In this document: in pieces, positions 1,319-38,452 of the stretch
How positions within the stretch are numbered: position 1 is the stretch's first letter
Layout of the letters: every line of letters begins with the position of its first letter
Notes under the pieces: generated by a model
What the model was told of the DNA's origin: nothing
Databases searched by the model: none
Seen by the model: only the letters and a program-made list of their open reading frames with translations
Translations under genes and position numbers: made by a program
Origin: a virus
Length of the DNA stretch: 41,435 bases
Reading direction: 5' to 3' (one strand)
Virus record (IMG/VR): IMGVR_UViG_3300028920_000141
Location: 1 to 41,435 of that record

Positions 1319-2698
1319 ATGCTACGACTTCGACCATACCAACGAGACGCGCTCAAGTTCTCCCTGGCACGGCAGTTCTCAGCCCTATACATCGACATGC
1401 GACTTGGCAAGACACGGGTCGCCATTCGTAGGGTCAAGGTCAGTCGTGCCTCGTTCATACTGGTGGCGGCGCCGTACTCCGCGCTCAGTGGGTGGGCGGA
1501 CCAACTGGCGCAGGAGGGGGAGCGGGCGGTGTTCAGTCTGGTGGGGACTCGCACCGCTCGTCTCTCTCTGTTACAGGAGGCGTTTAAACAGGCGAGCGAG
1601 GTACCGTCACGTGGTAGGGTCTGGTGTCTGATCAACAAAGAGGGTCATCGTGTGATCAGAGAACTAGCCAACTCCCACTTCGATGCGGTCATCATCGACG
1701 AGAGTACCTTCATTAAGAACCCCCGCGCAGACGTGACGAAGTATTACACCCAGAACTTCCGCGAGACGATACTCCGACTCGTCCTGACAGGTACCCCAGC
1801 GCCAGAGCACCCGCTCGAGTACCTGTGTCAGCTGATGTTCCTCGACCCGTCACTTCTTCCGGGCAACTACTACGAGACGCGTATGGCGTGGTTCTCTCTA
1901 CCCAAGGACCGACCCGACTCGCACGTGTGGTTCCTGACCCGACAGGGCAAGAGGAGACTTGCGGCCGTACTCGAGCGTGTCGCCTTCTTCCTGTCACGTG
2001 ATGACGTGAACCTGGGAGGCGAGAAGTTTTACCAGACCCGCAAGGTGCGACTCTGCTCGAAGGCACGCAAGGCGTACCAGACAGTCGAGGACGAGTTCAT
2101 CCTCAGTATAGACGACCTCAACGAGTCAACCATCTGGGCGACCCAGCAGTTCATCTGGATGCGCCGGCTGACGGGTGGTTCGGTACCCGTCGAACACGAC
2201 GACCCGATACCCGTTGACGATGCGAAGGTCAGGGCACTCGCGGAACTGGTGACGGGTGAACTCGCGGGTCAACGTCTCGTGGTGTGGGCGGTGTTCCACA
2301 CCGAACTCGACTACATATACGACCGACTCAGGAAGCAGGGAGTCGAGAGCGCAATCATCAGTGGTGACGTACCACCACCCCAGCGCGAGTGGGCTCGTGA
2401 GCAGTTCAACGCCGGCAAGATCCGGGTGCTCATCTGTCAGCCGGAGGTGTTTAAACATGGTGTCGATCTGGGTGAGGCCGACACGATGGTGTACTACTCG
2501 ACACCCTGCGGACTAGAGACACGACTCCAGAGTGAGGATCGCATCGTTCGTGTCGGCAAAGAGAAGTCGCTGTTGATCATCGACCTCGTTGCTGAGGACA
2601 CGATCGATGAGGACATACTGACGAGTCTGCGTGGCAAAGAGCGGCGCAGTCAGATGATGAAACGTATAGTCGAGGGGGCGAAGGTCAGACATGGTTAG
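1319..2698 (+). CDS. SNF2-family DNA helicase/translocase (459 aa)
   Basis: This is a superfamily 2 ATPase. Motif I is DMRLGKT (residues 26-32), a slightly degenerate Walker A. Motif II is DEST (127-130), motif III is LTGTP (156-160), and motif VI near the C-terminus is SEDRIVRVGKEKS, the QxxDRxxRxGQ signature of SNF2 proteins. Phage members of this compact form are thought to act in replication or recombination by remodelling protein-DNA complexes. ATG 1319 has GGAG 8 bases upstream; the in-frame GTG at 1289 lies inside the hairpin and is unlikely. The gene carries two GTTTAAAC sites (1582, 2449). It overlaps the next gene by 8 bases. Confidence 0.9.
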   Translation: MLRLRPYQRDALKFSLARQFSALYIDMRLGKTRVAIRRVKVSRASFILVAAPYSALSGWADQLAQEGERAVFSLVGTRTARLSLLQEAFKQASEVPSRGRVWCLINKEGHRVIRELANSHFDAVIIDESTFIKNPRADVTKYYTQNFRETILRLVLTGTPAPEHPLEYLCQLMFLDPSLLPGNYYETRMAWFSLPKDRPDSHVWFLTRQGKRRLAAVLERVAFFLSRDDVNLGGEKFYQTRKVRLCSKARKAYQTVEDEFILSIDDLNESTIWATQQFIWMRRLTGGSVPVEHDDPIPVDDAKVRALAELVTGELAGQRLVVWAVFHTELDYIYDRLRKQGVESAIISGDVPPPQREWAREQFNAGKIRVLICQPEVFKHGVDLGEADTMVYYSTPCGLETRLQSEDRIVRVGKEKSLLIIDLVAEDTIDEDILTSLRGKERRSQMMKRIVEGAKVRHG

Positions 2699-3137
2699 TA
2701 TCGACCCGGGACTGAACACTGGTATCGCCGTGTGGAGTCGCAACGGTCGGTTGAAGTTCACCGACCTCTGCAAGTGTCCGAAGATCACCGACGACTGCGT
2801 ACGTGTCGGTGTGCTGTGTTCGTGGGTGTACGCCCGGCTCCTGGCTCTGCCAGATGGTCCGGTGTACATCGAGGGTGTGAGGTCGTTTGCGTCAGCCCGT
2901 TCATGGGCGGCCAGTACACGTGGAAACCTATCGCTACTCGCCTACATCGTCGGGGGGTACATCAGAGTATGTCAGGAGTTAGGAAGAGCAGTATACGTCA
3001 TAGACCCGCAGTGGAAGGGTCAGCTGACAGAGAAGGCGCTCGAGTTGAGAATCAGACGGGCGGGCATCGCACAGCCGCTGGGCGACCATGTACGCGAGGC
3101 AGTCGGTCTTGGTCTGAGTGTGTTGCAGAGGCTATAG
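2691..3137 (+). CDS. RuvC-like Holliday junction resolvase (148 aa)
   Basis: RNase H-fold nuclease. SIDPGLNTG at the N-terminus supplies the first catalytic Asp (D5), VYIEGV supplies E61, and the C-terminal DHVREAVGLGL supplies D132 and a further acidic residue. Length and motif order fit phage RuvC/RusA-replacing resolvases that cut branched DNA before packaging. The start overlaps the helicase gene. The end leads straight into the uracil-DNA glycosylase in another frame. Confidence 0.8.
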   Translation: MVSIDPGLNTGIAVWSRNGRLKFTDLCKCPKITDDCVRVGVLCSWVYARLLALPDGPVYIEGVRSFASARSWAASTRGNLSLLAYIVGGYIRVCQELGRAVYVIDPQWKGQLTEKALELRIRRAGIAQPLGDHVREAVGLGLSVLQRL

Positions 3138-3628
3138 GATGTACACGTTGTCGCCTTCACTCGACGCGCCGCAATGTGGTACTGGGCAGAGGGGAGTTAC
3201 CCTGTGATGTCTTATTCGTGGGCGAGGGGCCGGGACAGGTGGAGGACACATTGGGCGAGGCGTTTGTCGGGCCGAGCGGCAGGCTCCTCGACCAGATGCT
3301 CCGAGAGGCAGAGTGCCGACTCAGGTGCGCCTTCACAAACGTGGTTCTCTGTCACCCTACAGATCATCCGCGCGGCGACAACCGTACTCCTTACCCTGAC
3401 GAGGTACTCGCTTGCCTGCCTCACGTCCTCGAAGTCGTACGGGCGGCGAGTCCGAGACTTGTGGTCTTTGTGGGTGACGTGTCTGAGCGTTACCTACAGC
3501 GTCATATCGATGGTGTTCGTATGCTTCATCCTGCGGCTCTACTACGCAAAGGTGGGCGCGCGGCGCCACACTACGATAGAGTAGTCACTCAACTATGGAG
3601 GTGGTTCAATGTCGATCTGGCCCGATGA
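2969..3628 (+). CDS. Family 4 (4Fe-4S) uracil-DNA glycosylase; start uncertain
   Basis: The homologous part begins near 3122 (VAEAIGCTRCRL). It has the cluster cysteines CTRC, then C in VVLCHP and C in ACLPH. Motif A is GEGPGQVEDTLGEAFVG and motif B is HPAAL. These are hallmarks of type 4 and 5 UDGs, which remove uracil from DNA. No ATG, GTG or TTG lies in frame near the expected N-terminus. The nearest are GTG 3011 and ATG 2969, which would add about 40-50 residues read through the RuvC gene in a second frame. Initiation at a non-canonical codon, or a -1 frameshift from the RuvC-like gene, is possible. The gene overlaps the next one by 20 bases. Confidence 0.75.
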   Translation: MSGVRKSSIRHRPAVEGSADREGARVENQTGGHRTAAGRPCTRGSRSWSECVAEAIGCTRCRLHSTRRNVVLGRGELPCDVLFVGEGPGQVEDTLGEAFVGPSGRLLDQMLREAECRLRCAFTNVVLCHPTDHPRGDNRTPYPDEVLACLPHVLEVVRAASPRLVVFVGDVSERYLQRHIDGVRMLHPAALLRKGGRAAPHYDRVVTQLWRWFNVDLAR

Positions 3629-4520
3629 GTACAGCATGAGCAGTGACGGGGTGACACAGTCACTCCTTGCGGCGGCGGCGGTCTGCCCAGTGAAGGCGGC
3701 GCTGATGGCCGACAGGTGGTACAGTCCCAGTATCGTCAAGAGCACCGCGTTCGGGTCACTGTGTCACGACATCCTCGAGACGGTCTACGGTGACGTGTAC
3801 ACGGGGACGTACGAGGACATCCGCGATGCGGTCAACACGGCTATCGACGCCCACCTGACGAAGAACCGGGACGAACTCTACGAGGTGCTTGGTGCTGAGG
3901 AGTGGGAGAGTGTGGCGACGAAGGCGTACGATGTGATGGTGGCGTACATCGACCACTATCTTGACGACTGGCAGAAGAACAAATACACAGGGCTCGAGCA
4001 CCTTGCTGAGTGTCGGTTCGGTGACTGGCGTCTGCGGGGTAAGCTCGACGGTATCTTCACCGCCAAGGACGGCACACGGTGGTTGCTCGAACACAAGACC
4101 ATGAGCCGTATCGATGAGGACTCGTTGTGGCTCCGGGTGTCGTTCGATTCCCAGGTCCAGTTCTACCTGCTCATGTACGAACTCGCAACGGGCGAACGGC
4201 TCGACGGGGTGATCTACAATGTGATCAGGAACCCGTCACACAAGAAGCGCGAGTCGTTGCAGGCAGACCTTGCCAAACGTCCCGAGCACTTCTTCATACG
4301 GGGCGAGGTGAAGTTCACCGACTCAGACCGGGAACGGTTTAAACACGACCTCGAAGCACAGCTGATGGAACTCGACATGCGCGTGAGTGGTCTGCTCCCC
4401 ACCTGGAGAAACACGACCGCCTGCGACAAGCCGTATCGGTGTACGTTCCTTGGGTGGTGTGCCACCAACAACATAGAAGGGCTGAGACAGAATGACACGC
4501 TGTTTCCAGAGTTGCAGTAG
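3609..4520 (+). CDS. Cas4/RecB-like PD-(D/E)XK nuclease with Fe-S cysteines (303 aa)
   Basis: Nuclease core: H53 (GSLCHDILE), D147 (KLDGIF), E161-x-K163 (LLEHKT) and QVQFY (182-186), the RecB-type order. C26 at the N-terminus and C272, C278 and C284 near the C-terminus match the split cysteine pattern that holds a 4Fe-4S cluster in Cas4/AddB nucleases. The likely role is 5'-end resection of phage or host DNA, working with the ATPase encoded next. No cas1/cas2 or CRISPR repeats are nearby, so it is a phage recombination exonuclease rather than a CRISPR part. Confidence 0.85.
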   Translation: MSIWPDEYSMSSDGVTQSLLAAAAVCPVKAALMADRWYSPSIVKSTAFGSLCHDILETVYGDVYTGTYEDIRDAVNTAIDAHLTKNRDELYEVLGAEEWESVATKAYDVMVAYIDHYLDDWQKNKYTGLEHLAECRFGDWRLRGKLDGIFTAKDGTRWLLEHKTMSRIDEDSLWLRVSFDSQVQFYLLMYELATGERLDGVIYNVIRNPSHKKRESLQADLAKRPEHFFIRGEVKFTDSDRERFKHDLEAQLMELDMRVSGLLPTWRNTTACDKPYRCTFLGWCATNNIEGLRQNDTLFPELQ

Positions 4521-6494: not shown

Positions 6495-6794
6495 ATGGAG
6501 ACACTGTTTAAACAGGGCGTGTGCGGTGAACTCGTACCAGAGGCGGCAGAGGGTCTGCGCCAGTGCGCGAAGTTCTGGGCGCTCGAAGATCAGGATCAGA
6601 TGGTCGTCACCTCGATACGTGAGGGCACACACGGCTACGCCTCGTTCCACCCCAGTGGTCGCGCGTTCGACCTTCGGTTCCCGGTGAACGTGAACATCAA
6701 GCAGTTCGTTGAGCGGCTCAAGAAACATCTTGGCGCCGACTTCGATGTGGTTCTGGAGAGCACGCACATACACGTTGAGTACGACCCGAAGTAG
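6495..6794 (+). CDS. Small M15/VanY-like (Hedgehog/DD-peptidase fold) protein (99 aa)
   Basis: Zinc-site signatures of the M15 fold are visible: HPSGRAFDLRF (H-x-x-G-R-A-x-D) and, near the C-terminus, THIHVEYD (H-x-H). M15 enzymes usually cut D-Ala-containing peptidoglycan peptides. At 99 residues this is a minimal domain with no signal peptide or cell-wall-binding domain, and it lies among replication genes instead of beside a holin. It may be a lysis enzyme placed early or have another role. ATG 6495 follows AGGAGAGAGAG; codons 4-6 contain a GTTTAAAC site. Confidence 0.65.
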   Translation: METLFKQGVCGELVPEAAEGLRQCAKFWALEDQDQMVVTSIREGTHGYASFHPSGRAFDLRFPVNVNIKQFVERLKKHLGADFDVVLESTHIHVEYDPK

Positions 6795-7200: not shown

Positions 7201-8966
7201 GGGTCGGTAGGGTCGAAGCCTTTGACGTTGAAACGGACGCGCGTATCGGGGTGGGTCCTCGACCGTATGCTGGCGACAAGATCTTCGCATGGCAGACGTG
7301 TGACACAGAGGGGAACAAGCGCGCGTTCCGTATCGACCCGAACAAGAAGGACCCGCGGCTCCAGGCGTGGCTCGACGACCCGTCGATCGAGAAGGTCTGC
7401 CACAATCTCAAGTTCGAGTTGACGATGCTCCGGGTGTGTGGGTACACGTGGCACCCCGACACCGTGTGGCATGACACGATGATCATGTCACAGCTGATCG
7501 ACAACCTCAGACACACGCACGCCCTGGGAGAACTCGCATACGCCTTCACCGCTCGAAGTGACAACCCGTACGACCTCGACCTTGACCACGAGGTACAGAG
7601 ACTCGCTCGCACGATGGGTGGGTACCACCGTGTACCACATGACCTCATGCGAGCGTACCAGGAGTATGACGTTGAGCGGACGATCGTCCTGTTCATGGTG
7701 TTCGCCCCTGACATAACTGGTCAGCTGTACGACGACTACCGCAACGAGATCAACCTCATCGTGTACCCGACCATCGACATGGAGGCGCGGGGCATCATGG
7801 TTGACCCGAAGCGCACAGCCGACCTGCTCGAGTGGTTAGAGACTGAGTGTATACGGGCCGAGCGTGAACTGCTCGACGTGACCGGGACAGAGATCAACCT
7901 GCGGTCCCCCGATCAACTGGCGTGGCTGTTGTACAGTCACCTGCGCCTGCCGATACTGGGGTACACCAGCACCCGCAAACCGTCAACGAAGGACGAGGTG
8001 ATAGCCCGTTTAAACCACCCCGCCGTGGACATCATCAAACGCCACCGCGCGTACACGAAGGGGTACGGTATCATCACGGGGTACCTCAACCTCATGGACA
8101 GCGACAACATCATACACCCGAACATTCAAACGAACCGCGCGGTGACAGGTCGAGAGGCCTGCTCCGAACCGAACCTGCAGAACGTCAGCAAGTCGGACAT
8201 CGTGTTCGATGAGGAGACGGGCCGGCAGAAGAACTACCCAGTGCCGGCGCGTCGATGCTTTCGACCTCGCCCGGGTCATATCCTCATGGTGTGTGATCAG
8301 GCGGGTATCGAGTTGCGTCTGCTCATCGAGGCGGCGGGCTGTCAGAAGATGATGGACTTGATGCGAGACGGACACCACCCCCATGTCGTCGCCAACCAAC
8401 ACTTCTGGAAGGGTACCGCCAGACAGTTCACGACGAAGAAGGGGGACGAGGCTCGATACGGTACTGGTAAGAACGGCCACTTCTGTATCTGGTACGGTGG
8501 CTCTGCGGAGAAGTTTGCACAGACCATCGACCTTCCCGTGAGTCAGGCGATGGTCGGCTACTCGTCGTACTGTCGTGAGTTCCCCGAAGCACCCGCACTG
8601 AACCGTGAGGGCATACACAAGGTGAAGCGAGACGGTCACAAGGTCGTCACCCCGTTCGGTCGCCCGCTTCGGATCCAGAGAGACGAGGTGTATGCGTGGC
8701 TCAACTACTACATCCAGGGAACAGCCGCAGGCATCATCAAGCGGGGCCAGACCCGGCTCAAACCGATGGACGGTGTGTACCCAGTACTGACCGTTCACGA
8801 TGACATCATGTTCGAGATCGAACGACCGTACGTGAAGTACCTGCCAGACATCGTTGAGCAGATACGGCGCGCGATGGTAGACATAGACGAGATCAAAGTA
8901 CCGCTCGAGATCGAACCAAAGATCTCTGCGACAACCTGGGACGCTGTGAAGGAGGTCAATGTATGA
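7197..8966 (+). CDS. Family A DNA polymerase with 3'-5' exonuclease (589 aa)
   Basis: Exonuclease motifs: D10-x-E12 (AFDVETDA), N70 (CHNLKFE) and Y154QEYD158. Polymerase motif A is CDQAGIELR (366-374), where most family members have DYSQIELR. Motif B has R420, K425, F429 and Y433-G434 (GKNGHFCIWYGG). Motif C is VHDD (533-536). There is no 5' nuclease domain, as in T7-type replicative polymerases. Phe at the O-helix selectivity position predicts normal discrimination against dideoxynucleotides. A GTTTAAAC site lies at 8008. It starts within the previous stop and is translationally coupled. Confidence 0.95.
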   Translation: MRVGRVEAFDVETDARIGVGPRPYAGDKIFAWQTCDTEGNKRAFRIDPNKKDPRLQAWLDDPSIEKVCHNLKFELTMLRVCGYTWHPDTVWHDTMIMSQLIDNLRHTHALGELAYAFTARSDNPYDLDLDHEVQRLARTMGGYHRVPHDLMRAYQEYDVERTIVLFMVFAPDITGQLYDDYRNEINLIVYPTIDMEARGIMVDPKRTADLLEWLETECIRAERELLDVTGTEINLRSPDQLAWLLYSHLRLPILGYTSTRKPSTKDEVIARLNHPAVDIIKRHRAYTKGYGIITGYLNLMDSDNIIHPNIQTNRAVTGREACSEPNLQNVSKSDIVFDEETGRQKNYPVPARRCFRPRPGHILMVCDQAGIELRLLIEAAGCQKMMDLMRDGHHPHVVANQHFWKGTARQFTTKKGDEARYGTGKNGHFCIWYGGSAEKFAQTIDLPVSQAMVGYSSYCREFPEAPALNREGIHKVKRDGHKVVTPFGRPLRIQRDEVYAWLNYYIQGTAAGIIKRGQTRLKPMDGVYPVLTVHDDIMFEIERPYVKYLPDIVEQIRRAMVDIDEIKVPLEIEPKISATTWDAVKEVNV

Positions 8967-9193: not shown

Positions 9194-11168
9194 GTTCACA
9201 CGACGAGCCTCGACTCAGTGGGTCGGCACCTGTCCGTTCTGCGGTAAGGCGAAGCACCTATACGTCAACGCAACCTCGCTGAAGTGGGACTGCAAGTCGT
9301 GTCATAAACAGGGAACGATCGAGACGTTTCTCCACCGTATACACGAGATGAGTGTGGCGGCGATGAACCGCCGCCGGGCTGTCGCCCTGTCTCGTGATAG
9401 AGGTCTGCCGACCTCTGCTCTACGCAAAGCCGGGTGGGGGTACAATGAACTGTCCGACCGATACGTGATGCCCGTGTGGTATGCTGACGGTGGCGGTGGG
9501 GTCTGGGACCTCCGTCACTACAAACTCGCCAGCGGTCGGGTGAACAGTACCGCAGGGCTACACATCGGTCTGGCGGGGTGGGAGGAACTCGACGGGTGGA
9601 AGGGTGAGGTGTGGTTGTGCGAGGGTGAGTGGGACTGGATCGCCCTGCGCACCATCATCAAGGAGTCGGGTCGAGACGCGCTCGCCCTGTGTTGCCCGGG
9701 AGCGGGGTCGTTTAAACGGGAGTGGGTTCAGATGTTCGACGGTCACGATGTGGTCGTGGCGTTCGACAACGACGACCCGGGACGTGATGGGGCGAAACGT
9801 CTCGCCGGCCTGCTCGAGGATACCGTCAAGGTGATGAGGTTCGTACGGTGGCCGGACGCTCGCCCGAAGGGGTGGGACGTTCGTGACGTGTACATCGCCT
9901 CGCACCGTAGTGGGTCACAGGCGATGCGAGAACTCGACGGGTGTCTCTCACCAGTGCCGCCGGGACTCGACGTGACCGCCGACCCTGGGAAGGGCTCCAA
10001 GTACGATGGTCCGGGTGTCGAAGCGACTGAGGTGTACAGCAGGTACCGTCGATGGTTCCACCTGCCCGATAACATGCTCGACGTACTCGACATCGTGTAC
10101 GGTTCGGTCATCGCGAACCGTATCGTGGGCGACCCGTTGTGGACGTTCATCATCGCTCCTCCTGGTGGGTTCAAGACGGTACCGATCATGGCACTCGACG
10201 GGTGCAAGAACATCGAGACGACCGACACCCTGACACCTGCCGGGCTCATCAGTGGGGCGACTATGGCAGGAGGTGTTGACCCGTCTCTGCTCAAACGACT
10301 ACACCGCAAGATGCTCCTCGTCAAAGACTTCACGACCGTCCTCAACCTACCCGCCCAGACACGCGAGGAGGTGTTTGGTATCTTGCGCGCGGCGTACGAT
10401 GGTAAGGCCGAGCGGGTACTGGGGAACATCGGCAAGAAAACGATCAAGGCTACGTTCGGTGTACTGGCCGCAGTGACCCCAGCCATCGAGCAGTACTACG
10501 ACCAACACGTACAACTGGGCGAGCGGTTCCTTGGGTTCCGTACACCCATCCCGTCGAGCATGAAAGATCAGCGCGAGTTCCTCAAGCGGGCTCACGGCAA
10601 CGTGGGGAAAGAGGACGAGATCGGTGCCGACTTGCGTGAGGTGTCAGCTGAGATCCTCAACTATGACTACGGCCCCGCACCTGACGTACCGGGAGACATC
10701 GCCGAGCGACTGATTGCGATGGCACTGGTGATCGGTCGGCTTCGTGGTGTGGTGACACGTGAACGGTACAGTGCCCAGCGTGAGGTGACACACATACCGT
10801 ACACCGAACTGCCGACCCGACTCATCAAACAGATCACGAAAGCGGCGATGGGCGTCACCCAGTTCAGACGCAAGACGGTCGTGACACACTCCGAGCTGTC
10901 GGTCGTGAAGCGACTGGCAGAGGGGTCAGTCCCTACGGGGGTGTACCGTGCCGTGTGTAGTATGTATCGAGGTGGACGTGAGCGTGCGTGGACATCTGCC
11001 GAACTCGCAGACGTGATCGGTCTACCTGAGTGGCCGACCGTCAAGCGGCTGTTGCAGAACCTCGTACTGCTCGGAGCGGCGAAGGTCGTCACGGTCGGCC
11101 GACAGCATTGCTGGACGCTGGCTGGTGACATGGCAGAGGTCCTTGAACTATCAGGGATGATGGACTAA
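9132..11168 (+). CDS. Primase-helicase (678 aa)
   Basis: The N-terminal zinc finger C34PFC37...C54KSC57 binds the template. A TOPRIM catalytic domain follows, with E164 (LCEGEWD) and DNDD (212-215). The AAA+ region begins near 335 with an atypical Walker A, APPGGFKT (342-349), in which Phe replaces the usual Gly before Lys, and D399 (LLVKDFT). The C-terminal 100 residues look like a winged helix (SAELADVIGLPEWPTVKRLL). The layout matches fused phage primase-helicases acting at the fork with the upstream polymerase. A GTTTAAAC site lies at 9710. Confidence 0.9.
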   Translation: MAKKAQVTNQPPLAFRQHGVEFTRRASTQWVGTCPFCGKAKHLYVNATSLKWDCKSCHKQGTIETFLHRIHEMSVAAMNRRRAVALSRDRGLPTSALRKAGWGYNELSDRYVMPVWYADGGGGVWDLRHYKLASGRVNSTAGLHIGLAGWEELDGWKGEVWLCEGEWDWIALRTIIKESGRDALALCCPGAGSFKREWVQMFDGHDVVVAFDNDDPGRDGAKRLAGLLEDTVKVMRFVRWPDARPKGWDVRDVYIASHRSGSQAMRELDGCLSPVPPGLDVTADPGKGSKYDGPGVEATEVYSRYRRWFHLPDNMLDVLDIVYGSVIANRIVGDPLWTFIIAPPGGFKTVPIMALDGCKNIETTDTLTPAGLISGATMAGGVDPSLLKRLHRKMLLVKDFTTVLNLPAQTREEVFGILRAAYDGKAERVLGNIGKKTIKATFGVLAAVTPAIEQYYDQHVQLGERFLGFRTPIPSSMKDQREFLKRAHGNVGKEDEIGADLREVSAEILNYDYGPAPDVPGDIAERLIAMALVIGRLRGVVTRERYSAQREVTHIPYTELPTRLIKQITKAAMGVTQFRRKTVVTHSELSVVKRLAEGSVPTGVYRAVCSMYRGGRERAWTSAELADVIGLPEWPTVKRLLQNLVLLGAAKVVTVGRQHCWTLAGDMAEVLELSGMMD

Positions 11169-11314
11169 TGAGACTACACCCGACCCAATGGCTACCGACC
11201 ATATTCATCGTTGAGTACATCGCGTGCGCGATCGTGTATGCGAGTTACCATGACTGGCGGCGTGTCGCGTACTGGCTCGCGGCGGCCGTCCTCAATGCGT
11301 CGATCACATTCTAA
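11168..11314 (+). CDS. Small two-helix membrane protein (48 aa)
   Basis: ATG 11168 overlaps the primase stop (TAATG). Two hydrophobic stretches (IFIVEYIACAIVYASY and VAYWLAAAVLNASITF) flank a short basic turn (HDWRR), giving a likely hairpin in the inner membrane. It has no resemblance to a known holin beyond size. Function unknown. Confidence 0.55.
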   Translation: MRLHPTQWLPTIFIVEYIACAIVYASYHDWRRVAYWLAAAVLNASITF

Positions 11315-11330
11315 CCTAGGAGGTAGAGCA

Positions 11331-11969
11331 GTGCCTGCGAAGAAGAAGAAGGAGCAGACAGTCAAGACAGGTGGTGCGTTCCCCGTCAATCGGGACTCAC
11401 AGTACTATCTGATACCACACCCCCTGCAGGCGTTGGCGGTACCCATCTCGAGCGTCAAGCTCTGGAAGAAGAACCCCCGCGCGAACGACGAGGCCGCGAA
11501 GAAGTTGGCGACCATCATCGAGGAGCATGGATTCCGGATCCCGGTGGTCATCGACTCGAACGGTATCATCATGGCGGGCAACACGAGGTACAAGGCCGCA
11601 AAACTTCTGGGCATGAAGAAGATACCCGCAGTCAAGCAGGAGTTCGTGAGTGAGGCACAGGCGACTGCGTTCGCCCTCGCCGACAACAAGGCGAGCGAGT
11701 GGTCCACCTGGGACGACGACCTTCTCGCCGACCTGTTCGGTGCCAAGTCGTTCGAGGGGTACAAGGGTCGCACGGGGTTCAGTGACGCCGAGCGCCGGGC
11801 TATCACGATGGAACCGGACATCGACCGCATCAACAAGATCAAGTCGAAGGAGTCTGGTATCAAGGGGAAGATGATCGTGCTCGTGATGGACATGGCACAG
11901 CGCGACGAGATCAAGGAGATGTTGAAGCTATGGGTGGAATCAAAAGGCCTAAACGTCGAGATCAAGTAA
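11331..11969 (+). CDS. ParB/Srx-fold domain protein (212 aa)
   Basis: GTG 11331 follows AGGAGGT. After a basic N-terminus (MPAKKKKEQ), residues about 35-105 have the ParB N-terminal fold: SVKLWKKNPR, then IIMAGNTRYKAAKLLG, matching the conserved GxxRxxA box. Phage proteins of this type are variously nucleases, CTP-dependent switches or companions of DNA-modifying enzymes. It overlaps the dpdA-like gene by 40 bases and belongs to the same transcription unit, suggesting a role in targeting or checking DNA modification. That link is inference. Confidence 0.75.
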   Translation: MPAKKKKEQTVKTGGAFPVNRDSQYYLIPHPLQALAVPISSVKLWKKNPRANDEAAKKLATIIEEHGFRIPVVIDSNGIIMAGNTRYKAAKLLGMKKIPAVKQEFVSEAQATAFALADNKASEWSTWDDDLLADLFGAKSFEGYKGRTGFSDAERRAITMEPDIDRINKIKSKESGIKGKMIVLVMDMAQRDEIKEMLKLWVESKGLNVEIK

Positions 11970-12835
11970 AGTGGCGAGTACCACTCCTGATCTCGTACGC
12001 GTACTGGAATAAGAACACGGCGCGCGACCTGTTGGCGTGGGGTCCCGAGCACTTCCGTCTGTTCCTCGACAGCGGGGCGTTCACCGCACACAAGCAGGGG
12101 AAGCAGGTAGACTTCGACGAGTACTGCGCGTTCGTGAAGTCACCGCCAGTGCCCGTCGAGAGATACTTCATGCTCGACGTGATCGGGGACCCGACCGCCA
12201 CGAAGAAGAACCTGGACCGGATGTTGCAACGGGGTTTAAACCCCATCCCCGTGTTCACCCGTGGTGAAGATGTCAAGACGCTCGACGAGTTCTATGCGGT
12301 GTCTGACCTCGTGGGTCTGGGCGGAGTGGCTGGTACTCCCGGTGCGGCGGCTTACGTCAAGTGGTTCGAGGAGGACGTACGTCAGGGCCGGCCGATACAC
12401 TGGCTGGGGTTCGCCAACCGTGACTTCGTGTTGTACTTCAAGCCGACATCGTTCGACTCGACCTCGTGGGTCAACGGCTGTCGGTACGGGTTCATTCAGT
12501 TCTTCCACGATGGGTGGAAGAAGGCAGAGCGCAAGGACATCCTCGCCGGCAAGTTCCGCCGGCAGGTCACAGAGTTGGGCTTCGACTACGGTGAGTTGAA
12601 GAAGGAGGTCAACTGGCGCCGACAGCAGAGGCTCTGCTCGACAGGTCAGATCACCGCGGCGAGTTGGTTGAGGTGGGCCAAGCGGCTCGAGACGATACCA
12701 TCGACGGCGGTCGCGGCGATACACCCTGACCTTGACATACCGAACATTACCGTGGCGTACGCCGCCTGCGAGAGTGGGTCGGCCGACTCGTCACACAACA
12801 ACCTGCAACGCGCATACGAAAGGGGTGACACGTGA
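11930..12835 (+). CDS. dpdA: DpdA-like DNA 7-deazaguanine transglycosylase (301 aa)
   Basis: A TIM-barrel relative of tRNA-guanine transglycosylase that exchanges guanine in DNA for a 7-deazaguanine base. Visible landmarks are FLDSGAF (D47), MLDVIGD (D83), GLGGVAGTPG (129-138) and FDSTSWVNGCRYG (D176, the likely nucleophile). Immediate neighbours are queC, queD, queE and folE, which make preQ0. No QueF or amidotransferase-fused QueC is present, so preQ0 itself is the expected inserted base. A GTTTAAAC site is at 12234. AAGGAG lies upstream of ATG 11930. Confidence 0.85.
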   Translation: MGGIKRPKRRDQVKWRVPLLISYAYWNKNTARDLLAWGPEHFRLFLDSGAFTAHKQGKQVDFDEYCAFVKSPPVPVERYFMLDVIGDPTATKKNLDRMLQRGLNPIPVFTRGEDVKTLDEFYAVSDLVGLGGVAGTPGAAAYVKWFEEDVRQGRPIHWLGFANRDFVLYFKPTSFDSTSWVNGCRYGFIQFFHDGWKKAERKDILAGKFRRQVTELGFDYGELKKEVNWRRQQRLCSTGQITAASWLRWAKRLETIPSTAVAAIHPDLDIPNITVAYAACESGSADSSHNNLQRAYERGDT

Positions 12836-13823: not shown

Positions 13824-14392
13824 ACGAGGTCTTTCGGTCGGTGCAGGGAGAGGGCATCGACACGGGGAGGTCGGCCGTGTTCATACGGCTGGCGGGGTGC
13901 AGTGTGTGGTGTGACTTCTGTGACACCGACCACACCTGCAAGTTCAAAGCGAAGGAGCAGGAGTTGATCAGAATGGTGACTGACCTGACCACCGCGCAGG
14001 GGGAACTCGTCGTCATCACTGGTGGCGAACCGCTCGAGCAGAACTGCCGACCTCTGTACACGGCGCTCTCCTCCCTACGGTATGACGTGACGTTCGAGAC
14101 GAGTGGCACGGTACGGTTCCCGGCGTGGTGTCCGACGACCCGTTTAAACGTCTCGCCGAAAGGGAACTGGCACGTGTACGACGACACGTGTGTGCGGTCG
14201 CTGAAACTGTTGTACCCGTTCCAAGAGAGGGCGACACCCTGGGACGTGCGACACTTCGACGCTCTATGGTATGGTATTCAACCCATCGACGGTGTGGAGG
14301 GCTCGTTCGATGGGGCTCTGACTGAGGTCAGACGATACGGCCCTCCTTGGCGTGTGTCAGTACAGACGCACAAACTCGTGGGGGTACGATGA
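13808..14392 (+). CDS. queE: QueE, 7-carboxy-7-deazaguanine synthase (194 aa)
   Basis: Radical SAM enzyme that contracts the pterin ring to CDG. C31-x3-C35-x2-C38 (CSVWCDFCD) binds the 4Fe-4S cluster, TGGEPL is the SAM-binding strand, and the N-terminal SVQGEG motif is characteristic of QueE. A GTTTAAAC site is at 14142 in the Leu-Asn frame. It starts inside queD and ends overlapping the folE fusion gene. Confidence 0.95.
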
Positions 14393-15496: not shown

Positions 15497-15655
15497 ATGA
15501 CACGCGAGCAGGCGAGCGAGTACCTGGAGACGGTCGCACACGACCTGACCAAAGTGGCAGACGAGGAGACGGCGGACGGGTACGTGTCGATACCCGAAGT
15601 GAGCGTACGCATCATGGTAGACCTGCTCAAGCAGGTGAAGGAGGTGCTAGGGTGA
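15497..15655 (+). CDS. Small hypothetical protein (52 aa)
   Basis: First gene after the second control element. ATG 15497; the TGA overlaps the GTG of the next gene. Acidic and helical (MTREQASEYLETVAHDLTKV). It is tightly coupled to the following genes. Not recognised. Confidence 0.55.
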   Translation: MTREQASEYLETVAHDLTKVADEETADGYVSIPEVSVRIMVDLLKQVKEVLG

Positions 15656-15945
15656 TACACAAGTGGGAGGTGCTGGCGAGTGACGCGATGTTCGGGCTGA
15701 TGTATGACGAGGCTCGAGGTCGTGCGTCGATCGGTGGGCTTGCCCGACTGCGTGACGTGATGGAGACGCTGGGCGAGGTCGGGTTCGAGCGGCCCGAGCG
15801 TATGCGGTGGGCGTACGTTCAGAAGAACAAGATCAGACACACGTGGACGTGTACCTGGGAACAGGTACAGCAGGGGATTCGTCGGGGTGTCGAGCAGGGG
15901 TACGCCTTCCAGAAGGTTCAGCGTCTGGGGAGGGTGATGATATGA
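15652..15945 (+). CDS. Hypothetical protein (97 aa)
   Basis: GTG 15652 follows AAGGAGGT (15638-15645) and overlaps the previous stop (GTGA). The protein is basic and Trp/Arg-rich (HKWEVLASDAMFGLMYDEAR, then TWTCTWEQVQQGIRRGVEQG). It has no cysteine motif or membrane segment. The four genes from 15497 to 16885 overlap by 4 bases each and form one unit. Function unknown. Confidence 0.6.
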   Translation: MIHKWEVLASDAMFGLMYDEARGRASIGGLARLRDVMETLGEVGFERPERMRWAYVQKNKIRHTWTCTWEQVQQGIRRGVEQGYAFQKVQRLGRVMI

Positions 15946-16886: not shown

Positions 16887-16894
16887 GTTTAAAC
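16887..16894. promoter_or_regulatory. GTTTAAAC site, intergenic, upstream of a promoter
   Basis: Perfect 8-bp palindrome 1 base after the stop of the preceding gene and about 50 bases upstream of the -35 box at 16945. One of six intergenic copies. Confidence 0.6.
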
Positions 16895-18637: not shown

Positions 18638-18645
18638 GTTTAAAC
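18638..18645. promoter_or_regulatory. GTTTAAAC site just downstream of promoter block B
   Basis: Roughly +15 relative to the predicted transcription start and 8 bases before the AAGAGGAGAGAG ribosome binding site: an operator-like position. Confidence 0.6.
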
Positions 18646-19534: not shown

Positions 19535-19542
19535 GTTTAAAC
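19535..19542. promoter_or_regulatory. GTTTAAAC site upstream of a ribosome binding site
   Basis: Followed by ATCATCAAGGAGG and the GTG at 19562. Its flanks resemble those of the copy at 17631. Confidence 0.6.
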
Positions 19543-20424: not shown

Positions 20425-20432
20425 GTTTAAAC
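20425..20432. promoter_or_regulatory. GTTTAAAC site upstream of a ribosome binding site
   Basis: CAGC-GTTTAAAC-ACAGCGAGAGGAGG; the GTG start is at 20453. Confidence 0.6.
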
Positions 20433-20452: not shown

Positions 20453-20794
20453 GTGCTACACAAGTGTGAGTCGTGTTTCGAGTCGTGGGGGTACCAGTAC
20501 GTGCAGGACCATCGTGAGGAGTTCGACCTCGACCCAGCGTCGAGAGAGATCACGAGGTGTCCTGCGTGTCCTGCTGACGGTCGTCACGAGGTGAGTGAGG
20601 ACTCGTTGAGTGACGTACTGTTGAACGGTCAGCCGATACACACGCTCGACCGTGAGCAGACGAGGTACCTGCTCGACCATCCACCAGAGGCTCGCAAGCA
20701 GGCGTGGTTCATAGCGAGAGCCCGTGCGCGGTTCGACTGTGTACCGATCAAGTCGTACGGGTACCGTATCATCTATCGACCAGGAGGTGAGTGA
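20453..20794 (+). CDS. Zinc-ribbon hypothetical protein (113 aa)
   Basis: GTG 20453 with GAGAGGAGGCGAG upstream. Two Cys pairs, CESC (4-7) and CPAC (about 40-43), can form a zinc ribbon. The rest is helical and charged, with a basic C-terminus (FIARARARFDCVPIKSYGYR). Possibly a transcription-associated DNA- or RNA-binding factor, given its place before the late promoter; unproven. The stop overlaps the next start. Confidence 0.6.
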   Translation: MLHKCESCFESWGYQYVQDHREEFDLDPASREITRCPACPADGRHEVSEDSLSDVLLNGQPIHTLDREQTRYLLDHPPEARKQAWFIARARARFDCVPIKSYGYRIIYRPGGE

Positions 20795-20958
20795 TGGGCA
20801 AGCGTCGCAAGCATCGACTGCCCCGTGACGAGAGACGGTCGTCGAGGGTCCAGGTCCTCGTGACTGACGAGGAGTATCGTCGTCTCGAACGAGACGCGGG
20901 TGACGAATCGGTGAGCACGTACGTTCGTAAGGCGTTGATTAGTAAGGGGGTCATGTAG
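20794..20958 (+). CDS. Ribbon-helix-helix (CopG/Arc-type) regulator (54 aa)
   Basis: A basic arm (MGKRRKHRLPRDERR) is followed by one strand and two helices with the RHH pattern: SRVQVLVTDEEYRRLERDAG, then SVSTYVRKALI. The family binds palindromic operators as dimers through the beta strand. Its start overlaps the previous stop, and it ends 6 bases before the -35 box of the putative late promoter. It is a natural candidate for controlling that promoter or for reading the GTTTAAAC palindromes; both are inference. Confidence 0.7.
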   Translation: MGKRRKHRLPRDERRSSRVQVLVTDEEYRRLERDAGDESVSTYVRKALISKGVM

Positions 20959-25355: not shown

Positions 25356-25363
25356 GTTTAAAC
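25356..25363. promoter_or_regulatory. GTTTAAAC site upstream of a ribosome binding site
   Basis: Starts 1 base after the preceding stop, followed by ACTCACGGAGG. It is the last copy before a 5.7-kb stretch without any. Confidence 0.6.
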
Positions 25364-30496: not shown

Positions 30497-31585
30497 ATGG
30501 GTGGCGGTTTTGTTAAGTGCAAGGTCATCGACGAAAACATGCGGCGACACCTTGGCGACTTCGCTTTCTACGACGAAGCCAAAGCTCAGGAGCTGTCCTC
30601 ACTGGGACTTGTTGAGGTACCATCAGAGGCAGGGGGCGAGTCAGACTCACTCACTCGCGACACCCATACTGGCCGCGCCCCCGCCTCACCCCCTTCCGGC
30701 GCTCCGACCTACCTGACACGAGGAGCCGGCTACCGTGAGGATTCGGTCGGCTACCGTGTCGCGTGGATACAAGACTTCAGCAAGGTCGGCGGTGCCGAAC
30801 TCAGCAACTATGAGGTCGTGCGAGTAGGCGAGGACATCGGGTACGACATCATCGGTGTCACCCCTTCGCTGTTTGACACTCGCGCACTCGAGCAGGCTGA
30901 CATCGTGATCGTCAACAACTGCTTCGAGTTCAGCGGCCCGCAACTCACAACGATACGACAGTTCCTACACGAGAAGCGTGTGCCGTACGTGAAGTACGAA
31001 CACGACTATCGGGAACTACGCCGTTTAAACATCTCGCGTCCCCTGTTCCGCGACGCCTCGCTCGTGGTGTTCATCTCGCCACGACATCGAGACGAGCACG
31101 GCGCGTCACTTGGGTGGGAGGCGACCGCTCGTTCTATCTGTCTGCCTCTCGCGATGAACCCGGACATCTATGGTCCTGTGAAGGGCGTCGAGCGTGAGAA
31201 GGGGCTGACACTGGTCCCCGCGTTGAAGAAGGTAGACCCGAAGGTGCTAGAGAAGTACCTGGACGAGAACCCGCGGCGTGACCTGCTTCTCCTTGGCCAG
31301 TGCCAGGCACCTCTGCCAGCGGGTCGTGTCAGACATCACAAGAAAGTGCCGACGACTGACATGCCGGCAGTGTACTCGCAGTGCGAGTTCATGTTGCACC
31401 AGCCTCGCCAGAAGTGGGCCGGCGAGCGAATCTATTTCGAGGCTCTGCTGTGTGGGTGTGAACCCATCGTGAACGACAACGTAGGACACGCCAGCTGGGA
31501 CTACGACCGCAACGACTTGTCTCAGGTCCTCGCAGAAGCCCCGACGACATTCTGGGGAGCGGTCGAGGAGGTGCTACATGGGTAG
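30497..31585 (+). CDS. GT-B glycosyltransferase with N-terminal head-protein-like domain (362 aa)
   Basis: Residues 1-45 (VKCKVIDENMRRHLGDFAFY, then QELSSLGLVEV) look like the small proteins often found right after phage capsid genes. A Pro/Ser-rich linker follows (about 46-75). Residues 80-362 are a glycosyltransferase family 4-type domain (WIQDFSKVGGAELSNYEVV; C-terminal GERIYFEALLCGCEPIVND, the nucleotide-sugar site). ATG 30497 has GGAGGG 7 bases upstream; ATG 30482 is an alternative. A GTTTAAAC site is at 31023. First gene of the glycan cluster. Confidence 0.8.
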   Translation: MGGGFVKCKVIDENMRRHLGDFAFYDEAKAQELSSLGLVEVPSEAGGESDSLTRDTHTGRAPASPPSGAPTYLTRGAGYREDSVGYRVAWIQDFSKVGGAELSNYEVVRVGEDIGYDIIGVTPSLFDTRALEQADIVIVNNCFEFSGPQLTTIRQFLHEKRVPYVKYEHDYRELRRLNISRPLFRDASLVVFISPRHRDEHGASLGWEATARSICLPLAMNPDIYGPVKGVEREKGLTLVPALKKVDPKVLEKYLDENPRRDLLLLGQCQAPLPAGRVRHHKKVPTTDMPAVYSQCEFMLHQPRQKWAGERIYFEALLCGCEPIVNDNVGHASWDYDRNDLSQVLAEAPTTFWGAVEEVLHG

Positions 31586-33906: not shown

Positions 33907-34721
33907 TGGCGTTGACATGGCTCAAGCCAGAACAACTTGATCAGGCGCTCCTCTCTCGCCTAGACGATGGTACGCCGTTCACCCTCTTGCGGTTCGGTGA
34001 CGGTGAGTACGAGGTGTGCAAGCATGTCGTCGGCGCCAGTCACAATGATGTCGAGTTCATCGACAAGTTCCGCAGGTGGTTCGGTGCCGAACGAGTCGGT
34101 CGAATCAAGCACGCGGATCTGATGGGGCTCGGCGCGAGGATCCTCGAGGCGTTTAAACACTGCACATTCCTGGGTATCCCCTCGTTCCGCGAGGCGTACT
34201 CGTACCCGAAGTGGCGGGGCGTGGACAAGTTCGTGAACAAGCACTTGCCCAACGGCATCACGTTCCACTTCCACGATGTCCTCGCCCTGTGGCGTCGCTG
34301 GAGTACGTTGAAAGAGATCCTCGGGAACCGTGAACACGTTGACCTGATCACGTGCCGGCCCAGACTACGAGAGAAACTACACGACCGCTTCCCGAACCTC
34401 GAACACGTGGGTATGGAACTGCTACAGCCTGAGTACTTTCTCTGGAAACGAGACAACAGCGGACTGCAGAAGTACATCGACGCCTGGGAAGGGGCGCCAC
34501 ACTACCCGAACAGGTACAACGAGATCTGTGACTCGCTTCATCGACAGGCACCACTCAACGGTCGCTTGTTCCTCGTGGGTGCCGGCGGGCTAGGGAAGAT
34601 CTACTGCGAGGTGGTTCGGTCGCTGGGTGGTATCGCGTTCGACCTGGGAGCCCTGCTCGACGGGTGGGACGGGCTGATCACTCGACCGTACCTCGAATCG
34701 ATACAGGAGTTCAGACTATGA
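33906..34721 (+). CDS. GT-D fold glycosyltransferase, paralogue 2 (271 aa)
   Basis: Same layout as its neighbour: LLRFGDGEYEV at the N-terminus and LFLVGAGGLGKIYCEVVRSL with DLGALLDGWDG at the C-terminus. The middle has diverged. ATG 33906 overlaps the previous stop. A GTTTAAAC site is at 34151. Two GT-D enzymes in a row suggest successive additions of sugars to a protein-linked glycan. Confidence 0.8.
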   Translation: MALTWLKPEQLDQALLSRLDDGTPFTLLRFGDGEYEVCKHVVGASHNDVEFIDKFRRWFGAERVGRIKHADLMGLGARILEAFKHCTFLGIPSFREAYSYPKWRGVDKFVNKHLPNGITFHFHDVLALWRRWSTLKEILGNREHVDLITCRPRLREKLHDRFPNLEHVGMELLQPEYFLWKRDNSGLQKYIDAWEGAPHYPNRYNEICDSLHRQAPLNGRLFLVGAGGLGKIYCEVVRSLGGIAFDLGALLDGWDGLITRPYLESIQEFRL

Positions 34722-35431
34722 TCGAAGGTATCAACATATTCCTACCGTCACGCGGACGACCGGACAGGCTGACCAAGTTCCTCGAGTCGATGCAGGAGAC
34801 AGCCACCAGCCCCGACCGCCTGCACGTGGTGTTCGTCCTCGACGTTGGCGACCAGGAGTCGCTCGACGCCGTGAAGGTGTGTAAGGTGAGTTCGCAGGTT
34901 GAGTGGGTACTCGACACGGGCAAGCCGCACCTCGCCAATCTGTACAACCGTTGCTTCGACAGAACCATACGCGGGGGAGACGAGTGGGCCGTGAGCATGT
35001 TCGGCGATGACATGGTGTTCGCCAGCGAAGGGTGGGACGTGCGGTTCGTCAACGAGATGAACAACGCCGAAGGGAAGGCGATCGTGTTCGGCGATGACGA
35101 CTACATTCAGCACGGCAAACTCCCGGTACACCTCGTCGTTCCGCGGCCCCTCGTCAGGGCTACGGGCCGACCGTTCATGGCGCCAGAGTTCCGGGCTGAC
35201 ATGATCGACACAGTGTGGCAGGTCGTGGGGAAGAAGTGCGGCCTGCTCCGGTACCTCGAGGACGTTCACATCAGACACGAACACAACAGTCAATTGCCCG
35301 CCGACCAACGCGACGAAACTTGGAGACGTTTAAACGCCGTGAAGATGCACCAAGGCAAGGGCTACAAACTGGTTGAGGAGATCGCAACTGGCATCGCCGC
35401 CAACTTGAAGGAGGCAGGATATGTCGGGTAA
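34718..35431 (+). CDS. GT-A (family 2-like) glycosyltransferase (237 aa)
   Basis: FLPSRGRPDRLTKFLESMQE at the N-terminus and the metal-site SMFGDDMVF (about 91-99) are typical of GT2-like enzymes; a later FGDDDYIQHG supports this. ATG 34718 has AGGAG upstream. A GTTTAAAC site is at 35328. Overlaps its neighbours on both sides. Confidence 0.75.
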   Translation: MIEGINIFLPSRGRPDRLTKFLESMQETATSPDRLHVVFVLDVGDQESLDAVKVCKVSSQVEWVLDTGKPHLANLYNRCFDRTIRGGDEWAVSMFGDDMVFASEGWDVRFVNEMNNAEGKAIVFGDDDYIQHGKLPVHLVVPRPLVRATGRPFMAPEFRADMIDTVWQVVGKKCGLLRYLEDVHIRHEHNSQLPADQRDETWRRLNAVKMHQGKGYKLVEEIATGIAANLKEAGYVG

Positions 35432-36747: not shown

Positions 36748-37595
36748 TAGTACAGAGCAAGGGCAAGCACCGACCGAACTTGCGGTACCGTGAGTGCGAA
36801 TGTCTGGCACGCGCGTTCACCCGGCTCGGTGTGAAGTCTCAGGTGACAGGTCTGGGCTACGAGTCGTTTGACTGTTGGAACGATCTCATCGCGCAGGCCT
36901 CGTCGGTTCTCGTCCTCGAGAACTACGGCATGCTCGAGTGGTTGCCCAAGACACTGACGCACATCAACGTCCCTAAAGTGTTCTGGTGTATCGACAGTCA
37001 CGTGGCGCTGAAGCGACACCTGCGTGAGTGTGACACGTACCAGTTCGACATGGTGCTATGCTCAGTCGGGGCGCACGTTGACAAGTTCGGTGATCGGGCG
37101 CTCTGGATGCCCAACGCGTACCCGTCTGATCTCATCGGCCCGAACGCCGACATCCGCAAGCGACATGATGTCGGGTTCTGTGGGAACTGGGTCAGAGGTC
37201 GTCGCGAGTTCTACGACAACGTGATGATGCGCGAGGTGCCTATACACACTGACATTATGGTACTGGGCGACTCGATGGTGCGTGCGATACAAGGCTACCG
37301 CATTCACCTCAACCGCAACCATAGTATCGACCTCAACTACAGGACATACGAAACACTGGGCGCCGGGACTTTCTTGCTCACGAACAAGACAGACCACCTC
37401 CTTGATCTGTTTAAACCCGGCGCCCACCTCGACACGTACGAGTCGGCTGACGACTGCGTTGAGAAGATACGACACTACATCAACCACCCCGACGAGCGTG
37501 AGGCGATTGCCAAGCGCGGCCACGAGGTCGTGAAGCAGTCACACACGTATGACGCCCGGGCGCGGTGGTTGCTTCGGAGAGGAGTCTTGCGATGA
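36738..37595 (+). CDS. GT-B (CgeB-like) glycosyltransferase (285 aa)
   Basis: The C-terminal half has the donor-site pattern of CgeB/Glyco_trans_1_2 enzymes: NYRTYETLGAGTFLLTNKTD, then HLDTYESADDCVEKI and HPDEREAIAKRGHEVV. The N-terminal half has VLVLENYGMLEWLPK and FWCIDSHVALK. A GTTTAAAC site is at 37409. Last gene of the glycan cluster; it overlaps the connector gene by 4 bases, so the cluster belongs to the structural operon. Confidence 0.8.
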   Translation: MLLIVQSKGKHRPNLRYRECECLARAFTRLGVKSQVTGLGYESFDCWNDLIAQASSVLVLENYGMLEWLPKTLTHINVPKVFWCIDSHVALKRHLRECDTYQFDMVLCSVGAHVDKFGDRALWMPNAYPSDLIGPNADIRKRHDVGFCGNWVRGRREFYDNVMMREVPIHTDIMVLGDSMVRAIQGYRIHLNRNHSIDLNYRTYETLGAGTFLLTNKTDHLLDLFKPGAHLDTYESADDCVEKIRHYINHPDEREAIAKRGHEVVKQSHTYDARARWLLRRGVLR

Positions 37596-37930: not shown

Positions 37931-37940
37931 GGAGGTCGAG

Positions 37941-38240
37941 GTGGAAGGTATCAATCCGGTCACGGCGGCAATCATCGCGCTCGTCGCCACGCTATTCGGT
38001 ATCGTAGTGAGAGAGGGTGCCCAGCTGATCCTGAAACTCGTGAACGGTAAGGTGGCAGACGCGAACCTAGGGAACGGCAACGGGAAGTACGTGAGGAAGG
38101 ACCTGTGCGAGGAGAGACACAAGCTAGTAGAGACTCGACTCGATGAGGCGAAGGGTCAACGGCAGGCGATACTCGACACGGCGAACCAGACGCAGAAGGA
38201 CGTTCGCATGTTGACCCAGCACCTACTGGAGAACGACTGA
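37941..38240 (+). CDS. Small membrane-anchored coiled-coil protein (99 aa)
   Basis: GTG 37941 follows GAGGAGGTCGAG. One hydrophobic N-terminal segment (VTAAIIALVATLFGIVV) is followed by a charged, helical tail (VETRLDEAKGQRQAILDTAN). Possibly a holin-like or inner-membrane protein. Its place inside the connector genes is unusual for a holin. Role unknown. Confidence 0.55.
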   Translation: MEGINPVTAAIIALVATLFGIVVREGAQLILKLVNGKVADANLGNGNGKYVRKDLCEERHKLVETRLDEAKGQRQAILDTANQTQKDVRMLTQHLLEND

Positions 38241-38452
38241 TGCCCAAAGAACTGACGCAAGACGAAGAACAGGAACTGCTCGCGGTCATCGACACTGGCG
38301 GTACGTTTAAACAGATCACGATGGCTAGCGGGCGACAGTACACGATCGGTATGTCAGCCGCGCAGTGGCTCAAGACGAATGACTATCTGGCCGCGGTGAC
38401 GCCAGACGACTCAGCCCTCTCGGAAGAGGACATGTACGGTGCTGAACTATAA
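38240..38452 (+). CDS. Hypothetical protein (70 aa)
   Basis: ATG 38240 overlaps the previous stop. Acidic, with a helix at the start and a GTFKQITMASGRQYTIGMSA stretch that includes a GTTTAAAC site (38305). Likely a small head-tail protein from context only. Confidence 0.6.
   Translation: MPKELTQDEEQELLAVIDTGGTFKQITMASGRQYTIGMSAAQWLKTNDYLAAVTPDDSALSEEDMYGAEL

What the first reader, a model, noticed from the sequence alone, without database searches (positions are those of the whole stretch)
1582..38312. 21 copies of the palindrome GTTTAAAC across the window
The 8-mer is roughly 80-100 times more frequent than base composition predicts. It sits in 15 genes in both reading frames that avoid a stop (ten Phe-Lys, five Leu-Asn), so selection acts on DNA rather than on protein. 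The TTA Leu and TTT-AAA codons it uses are otherwise uncommon here. The six intergenic copies lie right after stops and mostly just before ribosome binding sites. Candidates are operators or silencing sites of a regulator (as with mycobacteriophage L5 stoperators), DNA-organising or packaging sites, or a target or reader of the 7-deazaguanine modification. The window encodes an RHH regulator and a ParB-like protein that could be readers.
Basis: partly seen in the sequence, partly recalled or inferred. Interest (0 to 1): 0.85.

Follow-up and report, generated by a model that had tools for sequence, protein, structure and literature searches.

The report
Phage genome studded with GTTTAAAC tags
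An uncultured bacterial virus carries the exact 8-letter palindrome GTTTAAAC about once every 2,000 bases, in most of the places in its genes where its proteins allow it, so the virus is being selected to keep a regularly spaced DNA signal whose reader is still unknown.

Summary
In detail: 21 exact copies of GTTTAAAC, against 0.25 expected from composition and 0.02 from a second-order Markov model. Fifteen lie in genes (10 Phe-Lys, 5 Leu-Asn) and six between genes. One-mismatch variants are at chance level. Only 23 coding positions could hold the site without an amino-acid change, and 15 do; other 8-bp palindromes reach at most 30%. Copies are over-evenly spaced (smallest gap 744 bp, P about 1e-4 against uniform). 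Synonymous codon shuffling gives 0.15 copies on average, never more than 3. The closest relatives (portal 69%, capsid 86% identity) have none; they read TTC-AAG, Val-Asn or Phe-Val there, so sites arose by point substitution. One other relative, L040 (portal 52%, 42% GC), is also enriched: 5 copies, 4 of its 5 permitted coding positions. Among about 2.1 Mb of further related contigs none is enriched. This is selection for a position-flexible, strict, palindromic DNA tag covering the genome, most like HIP1, Chi or the Cluster O mycobacteriophage repeats. L5-type stoperators do not fit well. A ParB/7-deazaguanine link is unsupported: phages with that cassette lack the motif. Reader and host remain unidentified.

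The parts
1582..1589 (.). GTTTAAAC, coding (Phe-Lys) in helicase gene
2449..2456 (.). GTTTAAAC, coding (Phe-Lys) in helicase gene
4337..4344 (.). GTTTAAAC, coding (Phe-Lys) in exonuclease gene
6506..6513 (.). GTTTAAAC, coding (Phe-Lys); sister phage G001 has Tyr-Lys TAC AAG
8008..8015 (.). GTTTAAAC, coding (Leu-Asn) in DNA polymerase gene
9710..9717 (.). GTTTAAAC, coding (Phe-Lys) in primase gene
12234..12241 (.). GTTTAAAC, coding (Leu-Asn) in DpdA-like gene
14142..14149 (.). GTTTAAAC, coding (Leu-Asn) in QueE-like gene
16887..16894 (.). GTTTAAAC, intergenic, one base after a stop codon
17631..17638 (.). GTTTAAAC, intergenic, upstream of RBS of 17667-18197
18638..18645 (.). GTTTAAAC, intergenic, upstream of RBS of 18668-18832
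19535..19542 (.). GTTTAAAC, intergenic, between terminator-like hairpin and RBS
20425..20432 (.). GTTTAAAC, intergenic, upstream of RBS
21790..21797 (.). GTTTAAAC, coding (Phe-Lys) in large terminase; three closest homologues have Met at the Phe position
24339..24346 (.). GTTTAAAC, coding (Phe-Lys) in portal; sister phage has same residues with TTC AAG
25356..25363 (.). GTTTAAAC, intergenic, one base after stop, before RBS
31023..31030 (.). GTTTAAAC, coding (Leu-Asn); sister phages have Val-Asn GTC AAT
34151..34158 (.). GTTTAAAC, coding (Phe-Lys); sister phage has Phe-Arg TTC AGG
35328..35335 (.). GTTTAAAC, coding (Leu-Asn); sister phage has Leu-Gln CTG CAG
37409..37416 (.). GTTTAAAC, coding (Phe-Lys); relatives have Phe-Thr TTC ACG
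38305..38312 (.). GTTTAAAC, coding (Phe-Lys); sister phage has Phe-Val TTC GTC
15655..15945 (+). candidate reader: about 96-aa protein of unknown function, found only here and in the other enriched phage (L040 796-1101); weak candidate
   Evidence: fold search inconclusive
20794..20958 (+). candidate reader: small ribbon-helix-helix-like protein (sub-threshold match to NikA-like RHH)
11211..11969 (+). candidate reader, disfavoured: ParB-like protein next to DpdA; this ORF start is probably too far upstream

Best explanation
GTTTAAAC is a genome-wide DNA tag. Shown: the virus carries strictly conserved 8-bp palindromes far beyond chance, in most positions its proteins allow, at over-even spacing, at the cost of rare codons and some amino-acid changes; the exact positions are not conserved between phages; and two related phages of different G+C content share the same tag while closer relatives lack it. 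Inferred: a symmetric, sequence-strict double-stranded-DNA reader must find a site within about 1-2 kb anywhere on the viral DNA, so each newly covered stretch is favoured and extra nearby sites are not. The most likely role is genome maintenance or self-recognition (recombination/repair, modification or protection of viral DNA), as proposed for HIP1 and known for Chi, rather than control of single genes.
For: 21 copies against 0.02-0.25 expected. 15 of 23 permitted coding positions occupied; next best palindrome 3 of 10. Synonymous reshuffling: mean 0.15, maximum 3 in 2000 runs. One-mismatch variants at chance level, so recognition is strict. Smallest gap 744 bp, P=1.4e-4, and CV P=0.015, against uniform placement. 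Sites arose by point substitution, including amino-acid replacements. L040: 5 copies against 0.2-0.44 expected, 4 of 5 permitted coding positions used, 0 of 5000 reshuffles reach 4, and positions differ from the window's. About 2.1 Mb of other related contigs: 24 copies against 53 expected.
Against: No reader is identified. The host is unknown, so enrichment in a host genome could not be tested. Nearest relatives G001/G002, with 57-87% identical structural proteins, live without the tag. The even spacing is partly explained by where sites are permitted (P=0.08 once restricted to permitted positions). The permitted set is defined on today's protein, which the sites may have shaped. Known Chi motifs are asymmetric. 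L040 is a 16-kb fragment found after screening about 170 loci.
Confidence: 0.5

Rival explanations
1. Operator/silencer network: a phage repressor binds all copies and blocks transcription initiation or elongation, as with stoperators of Cluster A mycobacteriophages.
For: Five of six intergenic copies sit between a gene end and the next RBS; number of sites is similar to L5-type phages (26 in TipsytheTRex, PMC9283540); an RHH-like protein is encoded.
Against: 15 of 21 copies are inside genes, including structural genes; the site is palindromic whereas stoperators are asymmetric and orientation-dependent (PMC9283540); of two near-identical terminator-containing spacers (19470-19561 and 19754-19814) only one has a copy; no integrase or known repressor family was found in the scanned proteins, though the contig is incomplete.
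Confidence: 0.15
2. Structural sites: a phage protein binds the copies to compact, anchor or package viral DNA (possibly like the Cluster O dispersed repeats, whose function is unknown).
For: Even genome-wide coverage; no link to promoters; a palindrome needs no orientation; Cluster O phages carry 34 invariant dyad repeats, about a third within genes (PMC4351075).
Against: No DNA-organising protein identified; closest relatives with the same capsid and portal genes lack the sites, so packaging itself does not need them.
Confidence: 0.15
3. Loading or target sites of the DNA-modification system: the ParB-like protein or an unknown partner binds GTTTAAAC and brings DpdA (window) or a methyltransferase (L040) to viral DNA.
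For: ParB-like gene directly precedes dpdA; DpdB, a ParB-like ATPase, is described as serving dPreQ0 insertion into DNA (PMC12839542); L040 has a ParB-like gene next to an N6/N4 methyltransferase; the cassette has no homologue in unenriched G001-G003.
Against: Sonali, Bipper, Knocker and Nicole72 carry ParB plus the DpdA/Que cassette with 0 copies and no comparable palindrome; G009/L095 has a ParB 45% identical to L040's and 0 copies; window and L040 ParB proteins are very different (18% identity); only the ParB N-terminal domain is recognised, no helix-turn-helix.
Confidence: 0.08
4. Passive copy of a host-wide motif (HIP-like or Chi-like): the host genome is itself rich in GTTTAAAC and the phage merely matches it. 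This is a special case of the tag reading.
For: HIP1 is an 8-bp palindrome highly over-represented in many cyanobacteria (PMC4390886); phages over-represent host Chi (PMC3784561); the method recovers a Chi-containing octamer in Streptococcus phage Javan241.
Against: Host not found; G001/G002, probably infecting similar hosts, have none; window (59% GC) and L040 (42% GC) probably infect different hosts; the only bacterial genome with a distant portal homologue has an ordinary count (60 in 2.2 Mb).
Confidence: 0.2

Closest known systems
HIP1 and alternate HIPs (cyanobacteria; Elhai 2015, PMC4390886)
   Same: Exact 8-bp palindrome, extreme over-representation; alternate HIPs differ between related genomes
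   Different: HIP is a cellular-genome motif, GC-rich, with cognate methyltransferases; here a virus, an AT-centred motif, no cognate enzyme known, no enrichment of one-mismatch variants
17-bp dyad repeats of Cluster O mycobacteriophages (Corndog; PMC4351075)
   Same: Dispersed, invariant inverted-repeat arms, tens of copies, intergenic and intragenic, function unknown
   Different: TGTTCGG-N3-CCGAACA against 8 bp without spacer; Cluster O copies are denser towards the right genome end, here copies are over-evenly spread
Chi sites in phages (Bobay et al. 2013, PMC3784561)
   Same: Octamer selected at flexible positions across phage genomes
   Different: Chi of E. coli is asymmetric, with median O/E 2.5-3.1 in phages that over-represent it and about 0.2 per kb; here palindromic, O/E 84 or more, 0.5 per kb; this phage has its own exonuclease and Sak4
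L5/Cluster A stoperators (PMC9283540)
   Same: More than 20 dispersed sites on one phage genome
   Different: Stoperators are asymmetric 13-mers in promoters and short intergenic spaces, oriented with transcription

Membership tests
HIP-type highly iterated palindrome | Palindromic oligomer far above Markov expectation in one genome | tested here: met
   21 vs 0.019; no other 8-bp palindrome comparable
HIP-type highly iterated palindrome | Methyltransferase recognising the motif or its core is present | tested here: inconclusive
   No methyltransferase found among scanned window proteins, contig incomplete; L040 has an N6/N4 MTase of unknown specificity
HIP-type highly iterated palindrome | Motif abundant in a cellular genome | not testable with these tools
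Chi site | Asymmetric motif polarised with replication | tested here: not met
   GTTTAAAC is its own reverse complement
Chi site | Recognised by the host RecBCD/AddAB | not testable with these tools
   Host unknown
Cluster A stoperator | Asymmetric site oriented with transcription | tested here: not met
   Perfect palindrome; only a weak C/A bias in the flanks
Cluster A stoperator | Sites mainly in promoters and short intergenic spaces | tested here: not met
   6 of 21 intergenic
Cluster A stoperator | Cognate immunity repressor encoded | tested here: inconclusive
   None found in scanned proteins, but contig lacks the rest of the genome
Cluster O dyad repeat | Dispersed inverted repeat with invariant arms in tens of copies | tested here: met
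Cluster O dyad repeat | Sequence TGTTCGG-N3-CCGAACA | tested here: not met
   Gapped-palindrome scan finds GTTT-N0-AAAC as the dominant enriched dyad
parS-like ParB loading site | Co-occurs with the ParB-like protein | tested here: not met
   ParB-bearing Sonali, Bipper, Knocker, Nicole72 and G009/L095 have 0 copies
parS-like ParB loading site | Direct binding of the ParB-like protein to the site | not testable with these tools
   needs a binding assay

The most novel reading that the evidence does not exclude
Probability: 0.3. Interest if true: 0.85.

Novelty: new variant of a known kind. Interest (0 to 1): 0.66.

Why it matters
The functions of dispersed palindromes in genomes (HIP1, Cluster O repeats) are long-standing open questions. 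Here is a small genome in which selection for the motif is nearly saturated, with a second related phage sharing it and close relatives lacking it. The occupancy test used here (fraction of protein-permitted positions that carry the motif) is a simple general measure for such motifs.

Tried and rejected
Chance or composition: rejected. Codon usage: rejected by synonymous reshuffle. Insertion of a linker or mobile element: rejected, aligned relatives show substitutions without gaps at nearly all positions. Helical phasing at 10.4-10.6 bp: no convincing signal. An alternative palindrome in relatives G001-G003, G009, L041, L043: none comparable. ParB/7-deazaguanine link tested in named phages: no comparable motif. 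ParB relatives in viral contigs: none found. Host search: TerL alignment found nothing, portal alignment found one distant homologue in an ordinary-count genome. Structure of the 96-aa protein shared with L040: moderate-confidence alpha/beta model, only weak matches (best Z 5.8 to a microcompartment shell protein; T4 MotA C-terminal domain Z 4.0), not interpretable. Clamp-like protein model: low confidence, not searched. Literature: no report of GTTTAAAC as a phage motif found. Corndog genome for the same occupancy test: accessions tried are not in the collection. Density peak between the AT-rich 15.3-kb region and terminase: 5 of 21 copies, not convincing.

Full report
The window is an IMG/VR virus record of 41,435 bases, 59% GC, with all main genes on the plus strand. 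It encodes a helicase, exonuclease, Sak4, DNA polymerase, primase, a ParB-like protein, a DpdA-like transglycosylase with QueC, QueD, QueE and FolE, terminase, portal, capsid and tail genes. It is linear and ends at a tail assembly chaperone, so the rest of the tail region is probably missing. A good sigma-70 promoter match (20964-20993) and strong Shine-Dalgarno sequences indicate a bacterial host. The host could not be identified.

There are 21 exact copies, 84-fold above composition and about 1,100-fold above a second-order Markov model. Of 22 TTTAAA hexamers, 21 lie in GTTTAAAC, and one-mismatch variants are not enriched (3 against 3.5). This strictness is unusual for transcription-factor operators and resembles sites of methyltransferases, nucleases or other all-or-none readers (inference).

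Selection at DNA level. I listed every coding position where GTTTAAAC could be written without changing the protein. There are 23 with the curated gene set, and 15 carry it; with automatic gene of 26 carry it, and among 221 testable 8-bp palindromes the next highest occupancy is 3 of 10. Reshuffling synonymous codons gives 0.15 copies on average and never more than 3. Caveat: the permitted set is taken from the present protein, which the sites may have helped to shape.

Origin of the sites. Relatives G001 (portal 69%) and G002 (capsid 86%), perhaps two pieces of one virus, and G003 (capsid 61%), have no copy. At aligned positions they read CTG TTC AAG CGC for Leu-Phe-Lys-Arg, CGT GTC AAT for Arg-Val-Asn, TTC ACG for Phe-Thr, TTC GTC for Phe-Val. 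In the terminase the three closest homologues have Met where the window has Phe. So copies arose by point substitution, partly at the cost of amino-acid changes.

A second enriched phage. Among about 170 related loci only L040 (16.2 kb, 42% GC, portal 52%) is enriched: 5 copies against 0.2-0.44 expected, in 4 of 5 permitted coding positions and one spacer; 0 of 5000 synonymous reshuffles reached 4. After correction for the loci screened this stays significant (roughly 4e-4 to 0.02, depending on the expectation model). Its positions differ from the window's. The other related contigs hold 24 copies in 2.1 Mb where 53 are expected (some loci overlap).

Spacing. The smallest gap is 744 bp (P=1.4e-4 for uniform placement; CV P=0.015). 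Part of this follows from where sites are permitted: choosing 15 of the 23 permitted positions at random gives such a minimum gap 8% of the time. The unused permitted positions lie mostly near existing sites, and the large gap over the capsid genes has almost no permitted position. I read this as saturating selection for coverage; the spacing part of the claim is moderate.

Mechanism. Gene regulation fits poorly: most copies are inside genes, the site has no direction, and of two near-identical terminator-containing spacers (19470-19561, 19754-19814) only one has a copy. A link to the ParB/7-deazaguanine cassette was attractive, because the cassette has no homologue in G001-G003 and ParB-like proteins accompany DNA-modification enzymes (DpdA, Mom, methyltransferases, CmoX, PMC12839542, PMC12783734). 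But Arthrobacter phage Sonali has the same gene order and no copy, Bipper, Knocker, Nicole72 and PSASB_03 have no copy, and 9g has one where 1.4 are expected (Bipper, Knocker, Nicole72 and 9g were read in part). What remains is a genome-wide tag of the HIP1/Chi/Cluster O type. Shown: enrichment, strictness, occupancy, origin by substitution, recurrence in L040. Inferred: that a symmetric reader must find a site every 1-2 kb and serves genome maintenance or self-recognition. Unknown: reader and host. The only small protein shared by the two enriched phages alone among the loci examined (window 15655-15945, L040 796-1101; 24% identity) is a weak candidate.

Novelty. Dispersed palindromes in genomes are known (HIP1, PMC4390886; Cluster O repeats, PMC4351075). 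This sequence, its near saturation of permitted positions and its patchy presence between related phages were not found in the literature searched. I rate it a new variant of a known kind.

Noticed in passing
window 15268-15654: One of the most AT-rich spacers of the window, with GTTAATAC-type direct repeats and a GTACCCTCTTT inverted repeat: possible replication origin; holds no GTTTAAAC.
   Followed up: partly
window 16907-16970 and 18551-18615: Two similar promoter-like blocks (GTATTCYGCTGTTAAGAAAAA ... GGAATATCTGAGTAGAGTA).
   Followed up: no
window 19470-19561 and 19754-19814: Near-identical duplicated terminator-like spacers; only the first holds GTTTAAAC.
   Followed up: partly
Enterobacteria phage 9g, NC_024146 (L188): TGACCACA/TGTGGTCA occurs 30 times in 50 kb against 1.9 expected; meaning unknown.
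   Followed up: no
G003, IMGVR_UViG_3300032516_000047 (L014-L016): ATAAGGATTTTA occurs 7 times against 0.002 expected; possible promoter or operator.
   Followed up: no
G001, IMGVR_UViG_3300018080_000439 (L010-L011): AGAAAGGAGA occurs 15 times against 0.02 expected, probably an extended ribosome binding site.
   Followed up: no
window 11211-15267 and Arthrobacter phage Sonali 53450-57466 (L183): Same gene order ParB-like, transglycosylase, QueC, QueD, QueE, FolE in unrelated phages; Arthrobacter phage Shade has ParB-like near a Mom-like gene.
   Followed up: partly
window 16220-16885; L040 1098-1847: Divergent family with a sub-threshold match to the DNA polymerase III beta clamp, also in L095 and L081.
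   Followed up: partly
L040 4894-6183: B12-binding/radical-SAM-like protein in a phage, near the ParB-methyltransferase pair.
   Followed up: no
Streptococcus phage Javan241, MK448714 (L190): AGCGCGTG, containing the lactococcal Chi GCGCGTG (recalled from general knowledge), 9 copies against 0.27 expected.
   Followed up: no
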